A stretch of DNA of 64,000 nucleotides from Thiogranum sp. (GTDB lineage: Bacteria > Pseudomonadota > Gammaproteobacteria > DSM-19610), in NCBI GenBank assembly GCA_024636585.1, contig JAGXGS010000071.1:1-64000 (forward strand), given 5' to 3'. The notes under the pieces are model-generated. The model was given only the letters and a program-made list of their open reading frames with translations, was not told where the DNA came from and did no database searches. The position numbers and the translations under genes were made by a program. Position 1 is the stretch's first letter, and every line of letters starts with the position of its first letter. Below are positions 12,438 through 56,995 of this stretch, one piece after another.

Positions 12438-13025
12438 GTGAGCAACCATAACATGAATGCCATTCTGGAGCGGATCAAAGATCTGCAGGGCCAGCTCGAG
12501 GATGAACTCAATGCCCGTCAGGAACAGCTTGGCTACGAGCTACAGGACCGGAAGGTCCGCTTCACCCGGTCCATTCGCGAGCTGCACCGGGAATATAAGA
12601 CGGGGCTCCTCGAGTTTTTCGGCACCGCCTCCATCCGTCACGTTCTTGCCGCGCCCATCATCTATAGCCTTGTCGTGCCGCTGGCGCTGCTGGATCTTTC
12701 GGTGAGCATTTATCAGCACCTGTGTTTTCGTGCGTTTCGCATTCCACGCGTGCGGCGCAGTGATTACGTCATTGTTGACCGGCATCAGCTGTCCTACCTG
12801 AATGTCATCGAGAAAATCAATTGCGTTGATTGCGGCCACGGGAATGGTGTCATCGCATTTGCCGGGGAAATCGCCGCGCGCACCGAACAGTACTGGTGTC
12901 CGATTAAACATGCACGCCGGGTGCTGAACCCAAACAGCTGTTTCGCTCGTTTCGCCGATTACGGCGATGCAGCCGCTTTTCGTCGCTTGCAGCCCGACCT
13001 GCGCAAGGATCTGGGAGGCGATTGA
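12438..13025 (+). CDS. Unknown membrane protein with CxxC...CxxxH motif
   Basis: I do not recognise this 195-residue protein. Residues 7-55 are charged and helical (probable coiled coil: IKDLQGQLEDELNARQEQL). Residues 67-95 are strongly hydrophobic with a proline in the middle (APIIYSLVVPLALLDLSVSIYQ), probably one or two membrane passes. The C-terminal part has C129-x2-C132 followed by G-H-G-N-G and then YWCPIKH (C154, H158), which could bind zinc or another metal. The start is taken as GTG at 12438 because AAAGG lies upstream; an ATG at 12453 would remove five residues. It stands alone, divergent from accA and convergent with rlmJ, in the segment separating accA from dnaE. Confidence 0.75.
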   Translation: MSNHNMNAILERIKDLQGQLEDELNARQEQLGYELQDRKVRFTRSIRELHREYKTGLLEFFGTASIRHVLAAPIIYSLVVPLALLDLSVSIYQHLCFRAFRIPRVRRSDYVIVDRHQLSYLNVIEKINCVDCGHGNGVIAFAGEIAARTEQYWCPIKHARRVLNPNSCFARFADYGDAAAFRRLQPDLRKDLGGD

Positions 13026-14012: not shown

Positions 14013-15263
14013 ATGGACATGAAAACAGATCCGACCGCCTCGCTTCAATCGACTGAAGCCACAGAAAAACCTACCTTGCTGATCGTTGACGACTCCCGGC
14101 TGATGCGTCACACCCTGAAGAAGATGCTTAACGACGACTTCAATCTGGTGGAAGCCGTAGATGGGGAAGACGGTTGGGAAAAGCTGCTGGCGGAGCCACG
14201 GATCGAAGCTGTGTTCAGCGATTTATCCATGCCGAACCTCGACGGATATGGACTGCTGGAACGTATTCGCAAGGCCGCGGAAGCACGCATCAATATTCTG
14301 CCTTTCATCGTCATTACCGGAAAGGAAGGAGACGATCAATCGCTGCTGGAGGAAGTCAGGAAACATGGCGCCAATGACTTCGTCAGCAAGCCGTTCAAGA
14401 CCGATGACATCATTTCCAAAACCAGGGCATTTCTGACGCGATCCACAGAAACGCCAACAGAGACTCCAGTCGAAATCAGCGACGAGAGTGTTCGGCTGGC
14501 AGCCGAGGAAGACGCGCGCCTTATCGCAGAACAGGCCGAAGCACAGCGTTTGGCCGCCGAAGCCGAAGCTCAGCGTCTGGCCGAAGAAACTGCCCGTCAG
14601 GCCGCCGAGGACGAAGCACGCCGTATCGCCGAACAGGCCGAAGCGCAGCGTTTGGCCGCCGAAGCCGAAGCTCAACGCCTGGCTGAAGAAACTGCCCGTC
14701 AGGCCGCCGAGGAAGAAGCGCAGCGCGTCGCGGAACAGGCCGAAGCCCAGCGTTTAGCCGCCGAAGCCGAAGCTCAACGCCTGGCCGAAGACGCTGCCCG
14801 TCAGGCTGCCGAGGAAGAAGCGCGCCTTATCGCAGAACAGGCCGAAGCGCAGCGTCTAGCCGCCGAAGCCGAGGCTCAACGTCTGGCCGAAGACGCTGCC
14901 CGTCAGGCTGCCGAGGAAGAAGCGCAGCGCGTCGCGGAACAGGCCGAAGCGCAGCGTTTGGCCGCCGAAGCCGAAGCTCAACGCCTGGCTGAAGACGCTG
15001 CCCGTCAGGCTGCCGAGGAAGACGCGCGCCGTATCGCGGAACAGGCCGAAGCCGAAGCCCGGCGTCAGGCCGCTGTAACAGAGGCCCGACGCCAGGTAGA
15101 AGAAGCCGCCCAAAAGGCCGCTATCGAACCTCCTCCTTTCACGCTACTGGAGCGATTCGGCGTGCGTGTTGCACTGCCCTTCATACACATCAGCCATGTT
15201 GTGCTGGACATTCCATCGGATGAACAGTATGCAACCCTGCGCAAGCGCCTGAAGCGGAAGTAA
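14013..15263 (+). CDS. Response regulator with five-copy Ala/Glu-rich coiled-coil repeat
   Basis: The 416-residue protein has an N-terminal receiver domain (about 20-143): acidic pair D26-D27, phosphoacceptor D70 in FSDLSMPNLDG, T102 and K126 in SKPFK. From residue 164 to about 347 it consists of five 34-residue repeats built from AEQAEAQRLAAEAEAQRLAE-type blocks plus a partial sixth, predicted to be one long charged helix like TolA. The last 55 residues are different: a hydrophobic stretch (FGVRVALPFIHISHVVLDI) and a basic end (LRKRLKRK). There is no DNA-binding or enzymatic output domain. ATG 14013 is chosen; the frame is open upstream but runs into rlmJ, and a second ATG is at 14019. No histidine kinase is adjacent. 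The output, perhaps scaffolding or surface attachment, is unknown. Confidence 0.85.
   Translation: MDMKTDPTASLQSTEATEKPTLLIVDDSRLMRHTLKKMLNDDFNLVEAVDGEDGWEKLLAEPRIEAVFSDLSMPNLDGYGLLERIRKAAEARINILPFIVITGKEGDDQSLLEEVRKHGANDFVSKPFKTDDIISKTRAFLTRSTETPTETPVEISDESVRLAAEEDARLIAEQAEAQRLAAEAEAQRLAEETARQAAEDEARRIAEQAEAQRLAAEAEAQRLAEETARQAAEEEAQRVAEQAEAQRLAAEAEAQRLAEDAARQAAEEEARLIAEQAEAQRLAAEAEAQRLAEDAARQAAEEEAQRVAEQAEAQRLAAEAEAQRLAEDAARQAAEEDARRIAEQAEAEARRQAAVTEARRQVEEAAQKAAIEPPPFTLLERFGVRVALPFIHISHVVLDIPSDEQYATLRKRLKRK
14502..15053 (+). repeat. Five tandem 102-bp coding repeats plus a 42-bp partial copy
   Basis: A 102-base unit (34 codons) recurs five times in phase; the marker string TGCCCGTCAG begins at 14591, 14693, 14795, 14897 and 14999. 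Copies differ by scattered substitutions (for example ETARQ versus DAARQ, ARLIAEQ versus AQRVAEQ) but no indels. A partial sixth copy begins at 15012. The unit lies wholly inside the response regulator gene and keeps the reading frame, so copy-number change would alter the protein length without a frameshift. Confidence 0.95.
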
Positions 15264-54241: not shown

Positions 54242-55357
54242 TCAGTCGATGCTGGCTTTACCGGTCTCCGCAAGATACCGGGCCTGCAGCTTGTTATACT
54301 GTTTTTCCAGCTCTTCTATGGCTGCGTCCTTGAATTCCAGCAGTGCCTCCAGTTCCTGGAGCTTGATTTCCAGCTCCGGTTCGGAGCTATCGGCTGCTTC
54401 GGGCACCGGCGCCGCGGCTCTGTCAGCATCCTGCTTATCCAGATGAGCCTGAATCTCCGCCAGCTCATCGCGAAGCATCGAATTCTCGTCCTCGAGAACT
54501 GCAACGCAGCCGGTCAGTTCGTCGTTGGTGTGCTGAATACTGGCGAGCGCCTCTTCCAGCTCACTGGCTTTGGTGGCGTTGGGAGCCAGCTCTCTGATCA
54601 GATTGTGCAGACTGGCGATGGTGGTCTGTTGCTTGTCGACCATGTTCTTCAGACCGGATAACTGTGCGGTGTCGGGGCTACGCACGATGGTTCCGGAGCC
54701 GCCTTTTTTCTCGGCTTTCAGCCGTTCGTTCTCGGCTTCCAGAATTCCCATACAATGATGCAATTCACGACTTTGCTTTTCGAACTCGTCTAGCTTCTCC
54801 AGAATGCTGTCGAGATCGGGGATTTCATCACTGCTTTCTTTCAGGCGCGTGCGCAACAGCTTCATGGAATCCTGTTGATTGTTGATCACCTGCCGGAGGT
54901 GATCGAGCTCTTCAGTCTGGGTATCGTGCAGTTGACGCGCAGGCTCCGCGGGCTCGACCTCTGCGTTCGCGGATTCCGCTTCCGGTAGCAGCCGCGCGAT
55001 CAGTTCCTGGATACCCGCGGCAAGCCGTTTCTGGAACTCGACAGGATTTTTTTCCACTTCCCGCGCCTGCAACTCCAGCTCCAGAAATTGTGTGCGCAGG
55101 GTCAGCATTTTCACGGCATCGGGGTGTTTTTCACGCGCCTGGGCTGCCTGATCGATTAGCCCCTGGTTGCGGAGAATCTCATCCCGCAGATAATAATCGA
55201 ATCCCGTTCGTTCAGGTGCAACCACAGCATTTTTCAATTGGTACTGCAGAGACTGCACCTGGGCTGCGAGTTTTTTGCTGCGAATGATGAAAATCAACGC
55301 TACGACAAGCAGGACCAGAGCCAGCTCCAATACACCAAGCAGCGCAAAGAGATTCAT
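54242..55357 (-). CDS. Membrane-anchored coiled-coil protein of unknown function
   Basis: The 371-residue protein has one N-terminal membrane helix (NLFALLGVLELALVLLVVALIFI, about 2-24) followed by RSKK, so the rest should be cytoplasmic. It then has long Glu/Gln/Leu-rich coiled-coil blocks at about 25-50, 140-225 and 240-365 separated by Pro/Ala linkers (EVEPAEPARQ; AAPVPEAADSSEPE). ATG 55357 is chosen; another ATG lies 15 bases upstream. The upstream gene encodes a VWA membrane protein 36 bases away and they probably form an operon. No known domain recognised; it may tether or organise a complex. The 115 bases between it and mrcB (54127-54241) show no gene. Confidence 0.8.
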   Translation of the reverse strand: MNLFALLGVLELALVLLVVALIFIIRSKKLAAQVQSLQYQLKNAVVAPERTGFDYYLRDEILRNQGLIDQAAQAREKHPDAVKMLTLRTQFLELELQAREVEKNPVEFQKRLAAGIQELIARLLPEAESANAEVEPAEPARQLHDTQTEELDHLRQVINNQQDSMKLLRTRLKESSDEIPDLDSILEKLDEFEKQSRELHHCMGILEAENERLKAEKKGGSGTIVRSPDTAQLSGLKNMVDKQQTTIASLHNLIRELAPNATKASELEEALASIQHTNDELTGCVAVLEDENSMLRDELAEIQAHLDKQDADRAAAPVPEAADSSEPELEIKLQELEALLEFKDAAIEELEKQYNKLQARYLAETGKASID

Positions 55358-55393
55358 ACTGGAACCTGTCATCGTCGTTTTCCAGAGCCCCGG

Positions 55394-56995
55394 TTATTCC
55401 TCGGCCTCTTCTTCGTCGCTAGCAGCGGCAGCGGCTTTCTTCCGCCGCCTGATGAACCACCAGACCCCGAAGCCGATCGCACCGAACATCACATTCACAC
55501 CGACAAACAGGCCCATTGCGAGCACCAGGTTAATACCCTCTTCTTCCGGCTGAACTATCGGCGCTTCCGTTTCTGCATCCGGCTCCACTTCCGTCTCGAC
55601 CCCCACATCCTGCAGTTCCGGCTCAGGCTCAGGCTCCGGTTCGCTGACCGGCTCTGCCTCGAGCAGCGGAACCACTTCAGGCACTGGAAGCGGTGCTGCA
55701 CCGTCCGGCGCTTCGACCTGGAAATGCAGGCTTTTCTGGCGCTGGAATGTTGCGCTGGTGACGATCAGATTGAGCTTGTAAGGCCCGGGATTCACATAGC
55801 TCAGGGTGTTTGTATAAATGCTGTCTGCGGTTTTGCGATCCCCGAATTCACCCTGGTCGAACAATTCAAAGCGCGCCTTCGCACCGCTCGGTTCGATGAT
55901 CTCCATTTCAAACGTGGTATTCGTCAGTACGGCTTCCCGGTCCAGGATTTCACCATCCTGTTCCAGCCAGGCTTCCAGCGTCAGGCCTTCATCGATCGCG
56001 ATATTCGTCTTCAGTTCTTTGTGGGCCAGCTTCATGTCGGTCACGATGTAGGCGCGATTGCGGCCATCTGTCGAGACCAGGTTCCATTTGCCCGGCGCTG
56101 GATCTGGTATCGTGATCATGTCGAAATTTTGTGCCAGGAACCACTTGAGCTTCTCGCTGGCATCGTCTGAAGTCAAAGTGTTGCCATTCGGATCCTCCAG
56201 GTAAATTCGCACATCCTCGCGCTCTTTCGACGCGACAATAGTCACTTCTTCAATCGATGCATCGATAACAAAGCTGTTGTCTTCAATAGGCAGCATATCC
56301 GGCTGCTTGGCGCTTTCGAAGATTGCGCTGAACACTTCATGTAAATCGCTGTCATTTCGAGCCAGCTTGAACAGGGCATCAGTGCGCCGGGCTATCTCTT
56401 TCAGCAGCTCGACGTCAGAAGATTCAGTGAACGCTATCGTAAACACCTTGATGCCCTTACGACGCGCGTCCGTCAGAAGTTCATCGCGCAGCCGAGCCGT
56501 CAGGTCCATCTCTTCATCGCTGTCTCCGACGTCCATTTTTCCGTCTGACATCAGCACCAGCATCTTTTCCTGTTGTGGTTGTCCCTCGTTTTCAAGCATC
56601 GCAATACCCTGCTCCAGCCCGGCATGCAGGTTGGTGTACACCCCTTTCGATGACACCTTGTCCGCGGCTGAGAGCATGCGATTGTTGGTATTCCCTGTGG
56701 CCATGGTAAGGCGCAATACCGGATAGCCCTGATCACTGAAACTGATCAGGCCGGCGCGATCGCCGGTGCCCAGCAAGGACATGAAAAGTTTGGCTGCCGG
56801 AATGCGCAGTTTTCTCGGATCGTTTTTGGCCATACTCCCGGAACTGTCCATGATCAGCACCGCGTCAACCCCGGCGATTTTGTCCTGGGCGGCAGATGCC
56901 GTAGCAATGCCCCAGAACACAGCCAGACCGAAAAAGCAGAGACAGAAGAATACCGAGCGCGGGATACTGGAACTAAGCGGAAATTGCCTGATCAT
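55394..56995 (-). CDS. VWA-domain membrane protein with TIGR03503-like region
   Basis: The 533-residue protein has a signal sequence (hydrophobic 13-34, cleavage near ASA-A36), a von Willebrand A domain (about 42-235) with an intact MIDAS D50-x-S-G-S (LIMDSSGSM) and VLMSDGKMD, a beta-rich middle region (about 240-425: DNSFVIDASIEEVTIVAS, ITIPDPAPGKWNLVSTDG) that recalls the TIGR03503 family from memory, an acidic Pro/Glu linker (EPVSEPEPEPEPEL), a membrane helix near 494-515 and a tail RRRKK then DEEEAEE. Topology puts the VWA part in the periplasm. It could bind protein ligands via metal; no partner is known apart from the coiled-coil protein downstream. Confidence 0.82.
   Translation of the reverse strand: MIRQFPLSSSIPRSVFFCLCFFGLAVFWGIATASAAQDKIAGVDAVLIMDSSGSMAKNDPRKLRIPAAKLFMSLLGTGDRAGLISFSDQGYPVLRLTMATGNTNNRMLSAADKVSSKGVYTNLHAGLEQGIAMLENEGQPQQEKMLVLMSDGKMDVGDSDEEMDLTARLRDELLTDARRKGIKVFTIAFTESSDVELLKEIARRTDALFKLARNDSDLHEVFSAIFESAKQPDMLPIEDNSFVIDASIEEVTIVASKEREDVRIYLEDPNGNTLTSDDASEKLKWFLAQNFDMITIPDPAPGKWNLVSTDGRNRAYIVTDMKLAHKELKTNIAIDEGLTLEAWLEQDGEILDREAVLTNTTFEMEIIEPSGAKARFELFDQGEFGDRKTADSIYTNTLSYVNPGPYKLNLIVTSATFQRQKSLHFQVEAPDGAAPLPVPEVVPLLEAEPVSEPEPEPEPELQDVGVETEVEPDAETEAPIVQPEEEGINLVLAMGLFVGVNVMFGAIGFGVWWFIRRRKKAAAAASDEEEAEE

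What the first reader, a model, noticed from the sequence alone, without database searches (positions are those of the whole stretch)
14013..15263. Response regulator with a TolA-like repeat helix and no output domain
Seen: a complete receiver domain (D26, D27, D70, T102, K126) joined to five perfect-length 34-residue repeats and a distinct C-terminal end with a hydrophobic patch and basic tail. Known: most receivers carry DNA-binding or enzymatic outputs. Inference: phosphorylation may control a long rigid helix that works as spacer, scaffold or tether. The 102-bp in-frame units also predict strain-to-strain length variation.
Basis: partly seen in the sequence, partly recalled or inferred. 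Interest (0 to 1): 0.6.

Follow-up and report, generated by a model that had tools for sequence, protein, structure and literature searches.

The report
Receiver switch on a long arm
A bacterial signalling switch that lacks any usual working part carries instead a very long helical arm ending in a small conserved cap, and its relatives keep switch and cap while the middle part is exchanged, which suggests a switch whose job is to be held at the right place.

Summary
Window 14013-15263 encodes 416 aa: a complete receiver (D26, D27, D70, T102, K126), five 34-residue repeats predicted as one helix (158-370), and a hydrophobic/basic C-terminal end. 'TolA-like' is composition only. Relatives change the reading. 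Two family members (277 and 367 aa) share the receiver (60% identity) and C-terminal end but have helices of other sequence and length. The wider relatives, 76 of 91 frames examined, are receiver + mostly degenerate GGDEF; 42 of the 76 end in a cap (LLPLL..N..L.LG.D...L..RL) that also matches the two helix-bearing relatives. The window's own copy matches only through them. On receiver trees the GGDEF-less proteins with long spacers (helix, coiled coil plus transmembrane segment, acidic linker) form one supported group. In five of eight coiled-coil/acidic genomes an HDOD gene lies directly downstream (one split over two contigs), in a sixth beside it; none near the three helix forms. Best reading: an orphan phospho-switch on a length-tolerant arm, placed by its cap, working like RomR of Myxococcus but not a RomR (no MglB, no Trp). 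The rigid-ruler idea is weakened, the tether/spacer idea strengthened; function is inferred. New variant of a known kind.

The parts
14013..15263 (+). whole gene, 416 aa plus stop; start may be the ATG at 14019
14070..14438 (+). receiver (REC) domain, residues 20-142, with D26, D27, D70, T102, K126
   Evidence: Pfam Response_reg 23-136 E 8e-20; AlphaFold2 elements 21-142; Foldseek matches are receivers, best 3nhm TMt 0.88
14220..14222 (+). codon of D70, the expected phosphorylation site
   Evidence: sequence position; invariant in the three close homologues
14439..14483 (+). hinge, residues 143-157, low-confidence and presumably flexible
   Evidence: pLDDT under 50 at 143-159
14484..15122 (+). 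predicted single continuous helix, residues 158-370, rich in Ala, Glu, Arg, Gln
   Evidence: composition
14499..15008 (+). five 34-residue (102-bp) tandem units, residues 163-332
15009..15110 (+). sixth, degenerate unit, residues 333-366
15126..15260 (+). C-terminal cap, residues 372-416: hydrophobic segment 382-400 and basic tail RKRLKRK
   Evidence: conserved in two relatives; profile-profile match to the cap of REC-GGDEF proteins

Best explanation
An orphan, phosphorylatable receiver placed by its C-terminal cap. The receiver (shown by sequence, fold prediction and conserved active site) is joined by a flexible hinge to a long, salt-bridged helix that serves as a length-tolerant arm (helix predicted, tolerance inferred from relatives), and the arm ends in a short helix-turn-helix cap that docks the protein on a membrane surface or a protein partner (cap conservation shown, docking inferred). 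Phosphorylation by a kinase encoded elsewhere changes the receiver's surface, so that a partner is bound or released at the place where the cap sits (inferred). The middle part is exchangeable: in the wider family it is a mostly degenerate GGDEF, in nearer relatives a coiled coil with a transmembrane segment or an acidic linker, in this branch the Ala/Glu/Arg helix.
For: Receiver and cap are kept while the middle varies: window, G018 (367 aa) and G019 (277 aa); helix 213 residues in the window's model and 80 in G019's. The helix-branch cap profile A3, searched in 369 class genomes, hit among 8 foreign places at E<=0.01 the C-termini of two proteins (G150 E 2.8e-4; G280 E 4.1e-3) that the receiver profile found independently. 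In the reverse direction the cap profile A4, built without helix proteins, has as its best hit in G018 the helix protein's cap (E 8.7e-5) and in G019 the helix protein's cap second only to a REC-GGDEF protein (E 1.0e-4); hhalign A3 against A4: probability 91%, E 9.7e-7, 32 columns. Two short proteins carry REC plus cap without any GGDEF (L155, L169). GGDEF-less long-spacer receivers form one group: 11 of 89 rows, 99/97, one of them (L130) with a GGDEF-like part after all; 10 of 78 rows, 99/95, after leaving out 11 long rows. The 4 intact coiled-coil members have a clear hydrophobic transmembrane-like stretch (L124, L125, L133, L130). RomR, a studied receiver of the same outline, needs linker and C-terminal helix for polar placement (PMC3441718, section read).
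Against: The window's own cap does not match A4: no hit at E<=10 in G000, 2.5 bits, and 42 of 2000 shuffles do as well; its membership rests on the two relatives (38-40% identity over about 50 residues). The cap is not recognised in 34 of 50 GGDEF rows outside the A4 seed. The coiled-coil and acidic members, nearer on the receiver tree, show no A4 cap, so cap and receiver histories are not simply parallel. Cap structure is low confidence in the window's model, better in G019's. No kinase was identified: a histidine kinase near the gene in G018 is missing at the same place in G019. Nothing about localisation was tested. Trees rest on 128-130 columns.
Confidence: 0.5

Rival explanations
1. Receiver that drives oligomerisation: the long helix is half of a coiled coil or bundle, phosphorylation dimerises the receivers and zips the arms into a filament or scaffold, as proposed for receiver plus coiled-coil proteins of Myxococcus.
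For: Nearest relatives on the receiver tree carry long coiled coils. Many receivers dimerise when phosphorylated (recalled). The hydrophobic moment at 9 turns per 34 residues (95.3 degrees) is 0.29, so a right-handed bundle is not excluded.
Against: No hydrophobic seam at the classic coiled-coil angles: moment 0.04-0.06 at 98-103 degrees over 190 residues; 34 is not a sum of heptads and hendecads (arithmetic); charged i,i+3 and i,i+4 pairs abound. Only the monomer was modelled.
Confidence: 0.17
2. Trans-acting partner of an HDOD protein: the receiver has no own output because it controls a separate HDOD protein, with the spacer only holding the two at the membrane.
For: HDOD gene directly downstream on the same strand in G308, G062, G338, G309 and, on a separate contig that begins inside the receiver gene, G205; divergent beside it in G366; that is 6 of the 8 coiled-coil/acidic genomes. 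The own genome has 10 HDOD matches, and one of them falls in a supported group with the acidic-type linked HDODs. HDOD also occurs as a fused output of receivers (recalled).
Against: No HDOD in the window, in 18.5 kb of G018 or 12.5 kb of G019 around the helix form; none on G353's 17.3-kb contig; G145 cannot be judged (contig end). The linked HDODs do not form one group.
Confidence: 0.2
3. Phosphate sink or CheY-like switch with an inert tail: the receiver alone does the work and the repeats are a tolerated expansion.
For: Complete receiver. Repeats of low complexity expand easily; length differs between close relatives.
Against: The far C-terminal end is conserved across the repeats, the frame is kept through five units with an excess of silent change, and the whole outline recurs in three genomes of two genera.
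Confidence: 0.1
4. Spacer of exact length (ruler) bridging two fixed structures.
For: Regular 34-residue units; one uninterrupted predicted helix of about 32 nm at 0.15 nm per residue (rise recalled).
Against: Predicted helices of 213 and 80 residues in homologues and in-frame gaps of 231 and 39 nt between two close relatives.
Confidence: 0.03

Closest known systems
RomR of Myxococcus xanthus (PMC3441718, PMC3420945)
   Same: Receiver with a phosphorylatable Asp, then a linker that is not conserved in length or composition, then a conserved short alpha-helical C-terminal region; no classical output domain (PMC3441718, passages, section 7 read).
   Different: RomR's linker is described as unstructured and its C-terminal region as Glu-rich with invariant Trp and Pro; here the linker is a predicted helix, the cap is hydrophobic/basic without Trp, and MglB (PF03259) was found in 0 of 8 genomes.
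FrzS of Myxococcus xanthus (PMC1974792, abstract in the listing); AglZ (recalled)
   Same: Receiver-like domain joined to a long extension, concerned with placement in the cell (the coiled coil of FrzS and AglZ is recalled).
   Different: The FrzS receiver lacks the Asp phosphorylation site according to that abstract; here D70 and the other active-site residues are present. The window's helix lacks a coiled-coil seam.
REC-GGDEF response regulators (PleD type) of the same class
   Same: Receiver of the same subfamily (E about 1e-40 with profile A2) and, in 42 of 76 examined, the C-terminal cap recognised by A4.
   Different: A Pfam GGDEF domain sits between (5 of 5 scanned; 76 of 76 by a home-made profile); a GGDEF-like signature was found by a simple pattern in 5 of 77. 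The window has none.
Receiver + coiled coil + transmembrane proteins and receiver + acidic linker proteins found here (L124, L125, L133, L088, L093)
   Same: Same receiver group on the trees; no GGDEF; hydrophobic or amphipathic C-terminal part.
   Different: Other spacers, no A4 cap, and usually an HDOD neighbour.
TolA domain II
   Same: Ala/Glu/charged repeat composition (resemblance recalled).
   Different: No TolA family match; no N-terminal transmembrane segment; receiver in front.

Membership tests
Response regulator receiver (PF00072) | receiver fold with acidic pocket, phospho-Asp, Thr/Ser and Lys | tested here: met
   PF00072 E 8e-20; D26 D27 D70 T102 K126 invariant with two relatives; receiver fold in model and Foldseek
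Response regulator with known output domain | recognised output domain after the receiver | tested here: not met
   no other Pfam family at E<=0.001; no NCBIfam family reaches its cut-off among the 25 shown of 72
REC-GGDEF (PleD type) | GGDEF domain | tested here: not met
   no GGDEF in P0001 or by home-made profile in the three helix proteins
REC - variable middle - C-terminal cap group described here | receiver of the A2 subfamily | tested here: met
   A2 is built from it; nearest wider group on the tree 99/97 and 99/95
REC - variable middle - C-terminal cap group described here | cap recognised by the A4 profile | tested here: inconclusive
   met in G018 and G019 (E 8.7e-5, 1.0e-4); window copy itself not found at E<=10, 42 of 2000 shuffles as good
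RomR | receiver, variable linker, conserved short C-terminal helix | tested here: met
   outline only:
RomR | C-terminal region Glu-rich with invariant Trp and Pro | tested here: not met
   no Trp in residues 372-416 and basic end; definition from PMC3441718
RomR | co-occurrence with MglA/MglB | tested here: not met
   PF03259 in 0 of 8 genomes, own genome 83% complete; MglA not searched
FrzS / AglZ | receiver-like domain without the phosphorylation site, plus coiled coil | tested here: not met
   D70 present; no seam at coiled-coil angles
TolA | TolA sequence domains | tested here: not met
single alpha-helix (SAH) proteins | stable monomeric helix in solution | not testable with these tools
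   only predicted: one helix 158-370, charged i,i+3 and i,i+4 pairs

The most novel reading that the evidence does not exclude
Within one gammaproteobacterial receiver subfamily the output domain has been dropped and the spacer itself became the output: a branch of phospho-switches in which transmembrane coiled coils, acidic linkers and 12-32 nm single helices are interchangeable arms, each ending in a membrane- or partner-binding end, so that what phosphorylation controls is where a switch is presented and not what enzyme or DNA-binding part is turned on.
Probability: 0.3. Interest if true: 0.7.

Novelty: new variant of a known kind. Interest (0 to 1): 0.45.

Why it matters
Receivers without an output domain are usually read as CheY-like shuttles. 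Here a whole branch keeps receiver and C-terminal end while exchanging the middle, which points to placement as the output and offers a natural set of spacers of very different kind and length for testing how much the arm matters. The conserved cap, which Pfam does not name in the ten relatives scanned, marks many receiver-GGDEF proteins of the class and gives a handle for finding their partners, and the HDOD neighbourhood of the coiled-coil and acidic branch gives a first partner to test.

Tried and rejected
TolA homology: no match. TALE-repeat homology: the 34-residue units score against TAL effector chains in the PDB (best E 1.5e-8) with zero matched stretches that pass on their own; I read this as a period coincidence, since the window's units have no Gly or Pro and are modelled as one helix. 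No TAL sequence was fetched.

RomR-MglAB pathway: rejected for lack of MglB in 8 of 8 genomes. Cognate kinase by neighbourhood: a 464-aa kinase (4HB_MCP, HisKA, HATPase) two genes from the receiver in G018 is absent from the same place in G019, so not taken as partner. Kinase by co-occurrence was not done.

Weak C-terminal hits in the same genus (G004, G007, G015, G016, E 0.2-0.9) proved to be an unrelated 179-aa family without receiver. Most rows beyond G018 and G019 were likewise unrelated (L012 by its frames).

My first tree label 'ACID' for L130 was wrong: it has a GGDEF-like part, a coiled coil and a transmembrane stretch. L090 and L092 are cut by contig ends just after the receiver and were labelled coiled-coil only because their receivers match L124 and L125. 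L086 and L098 are cut copies of L124 and L125 and were dropped before the trees (91 to 89 rows). Not every row was fetched.

The HDOD tree did not give one group of receiver-linked HDODs. Synteny of the window's neighbours with the 19 receiver loci: no hits. Paper searches for membrane-anchored response regulators gave 0 papers; searches gave listings only, nothing used.

Full report
What is there. The 416-aa protein at 14013-15263 (+) is real and as described: a complete receiver, a hinge, five exact 34-residue units plus a degenerate sixth, and a hydrophobic/basic end. AlphaFold2 with three rows gives a receiver, one helix from 158 to 370 (pLDDT about 95 through most of it) and an uncertain end. 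For the 277-aa relative from G019 it gives a receiver, a low-confidence hinge, a helix of 80 residues, then helices 241-262 and 265-276, that is, a helix-turn-helix end. Foldseek lists only receiver structures among the 50 rows printed.

Close relatives. The last 45 residues, searched in 56 related genomes, gave two true homologues, G019 (E 6.9e-4) and G018 (E 0.011); the other 13 genomes with matches at E<=1, apart from the own genome, that I read were unrelated. With the profile A3 made from the three ends, 3 of the 20 genomes of the family have it (own, G018, G019; the next best has E 0.09). In the own genus it is 1 of 17. The receivers are 60% identical. The helices differ in sequence and length: 277, 367 and 416 aa in all. 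Between G018 and G019, whose flanks are about 90% identical in DNA, the helix region shows in-frame gaps of 231 and 39 nt. Gene neighbours differ: rlmJ, an S30AE/cold-shock protein and dnaE in the window; a Host_attach protein and an adk-like gene in G018/G019 (adk named by eye).

Wider relatives. The receiver profile A2 finds one strong match (E about 1e-34 to 1e-44) in nearly every family genome: 19 of 20 have a match at E<=1e-25. Apart from the three helix proteins these are receiver + GGDEF-like proteins (the family's G007 has none). G019 has both kinds, G018 and the own genome (83% complete) only the helix kind. In the class, 73 of 369 genomes have a match. From the loci that I fetched I took 91 different frames over 85 bits: 76 with a GGDEF-like part, 3 helix, 7 coiled-coil (2 of them cut copies, 2 cut by contig ends), 3 first called acidic (one wrongly), 2 short. 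Five of the GGDEF kind scanned with Pfam all hit PF00990 (E 1e-21 to 1e-30). A simple pattern found a GGDEF-like signature in 5 of 77, so most look degenerate (pattern search, not a site-by-site alignment).

The cap. The same short end recurs at the C-terminus of many of the GGDEF proteins and of the two short ones: consensus G....L.P.L..LL...LPLL...N..L.LG.D.....L..RL. The link to the helix proteins was tested both ways. A3 found the ends of two receiver-GGDEF proteins among its 8 foreign matches in 369 genomes. A4, built from 28 rows without helix proteins, found the helix proteins' ends as first hit in G018 and second in G019. Profile against profile gives 91% and E 9.7e-7 over 32 columns. 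Against this, the window's own end is too far diverged to be found directly, A4 recognises only 42 of 76 GGDEF rows (16 of the 50 outside its seed), and none of the coiled-coil or acidic rows.

Trees. On 89 receivers (128 columns) the three helix proteins form a group (99/92), and with 5 coiled-coil and 3 'acidic' rows a group of 11 (99/97). Without 11 long rows the group is 10 of 78 (99/95), and helix plus acidic are sisters (98/86). The column number is small and the root unknown, so 'one group' is safer than 'one loss of GGDEF'. The L124, L125, L133 and L130 proteins each have a transmembrane-like stretch (mean hydropathy 1.8-2.5); L093 ends in an amphipathic stretch (1.39); the window's patch scores 1.48 and the two relatives' 1.2, below the usual 1.6 for a transmembrane segment (recalled), so surface binding is likelier than insertion.

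Neighbours. HDOD genes lie directly downstream, same strand, in G308, G062, G338 and G309; in G205 downstream of the receiver gene's end on another contig; and divergent in G366. G353 has none on 17.3 kb and G145 cannot be judged. That is 6 of 8 genomes, in 4 of 6 genera as coded by the tool (G308/G062 and G309/G205 share genera, as do G353/G145, hence 4 of 5 if G145 is counted with G353). Of ten GGDEF-type loci with long flanks, 3 have an HDOD (L121, L122, L129). Around the helix form there is none (window 64 kb, G018 18.5 kb, G019 12.5 kb).

Mechanism. The most economical account is a phospho-switch placed by its end through an arm whose kind and length hardly matter. Shown: intact receiver, predicted helix, conserved end, exchangeable middle. 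Inferred: phosphorylation at D70, docking by the end, action on a partner. The nearest studied case is RomR, in which receiver, variable linker and conserved C-terminal helix are also the only parts, and linker and C-terminal helix each suffice for polar targeting (PMC3441718: passages, section 7). It is not a RomR: no Trp, no Glu-rich end, no MglB. I read the abstract of PMC3420945 and search listings only for the other papers. My paper searches listed no description of this receiver-helix-cap outline; they cover open-licence papers only.

Verdict. Observation confirmed; interpretation partly supported; new variant of a known kind; interest 0.45, because the family context makes placement as output testable, while function and partner remain unknown.

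Noticed in passing
window 54245-56995 (-): A single-transmembrane coiled-coil protein (54245-55372) next to a von Willebrand A protein (55397-56995). VWA homologues (25-29% identity, E 1e-36 to 1e-44) sit, also beside a small membrane coil protein, directly next to the receiver-HDOD pair in G308 and G062 (L127, L128). In the window they are 40 kb from the receiver.
   Followed up: partly
window 12438-13025 (+): 195-aa protein with an N-terminal coil, a hydrophobic stretch and Cys pairs; no Pfam family and no NCBIfam family above its cut-off.
   Followed up: no
L155 (G318) and L169 (G327): Natural minimal forms: receiver plus cap with about 92-112 residues after the receiver and no GGDEF; good material for studying the cap.
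   Followed up: partly
L101, L104, L135: Receiver-GGDEF proteins that end in a different, short amphipathic basic stretch (such as GIFRRILSSIASLFRRS), reached through a disordered-looking linker.
   Followed up: no
L112:11623-13014 (G018): Histidine kinase (4HB_MCP, HisKA, HATPase) two genes from the helix receiver, absent at the same place in the closely related G019.
   Followed up: partly
window 14223-14675 (-) and 14856-15113 (-): Open frames on the other strand of the repeats; they look like shadows of the biased codon pattern, not genes.
   Followed up: no
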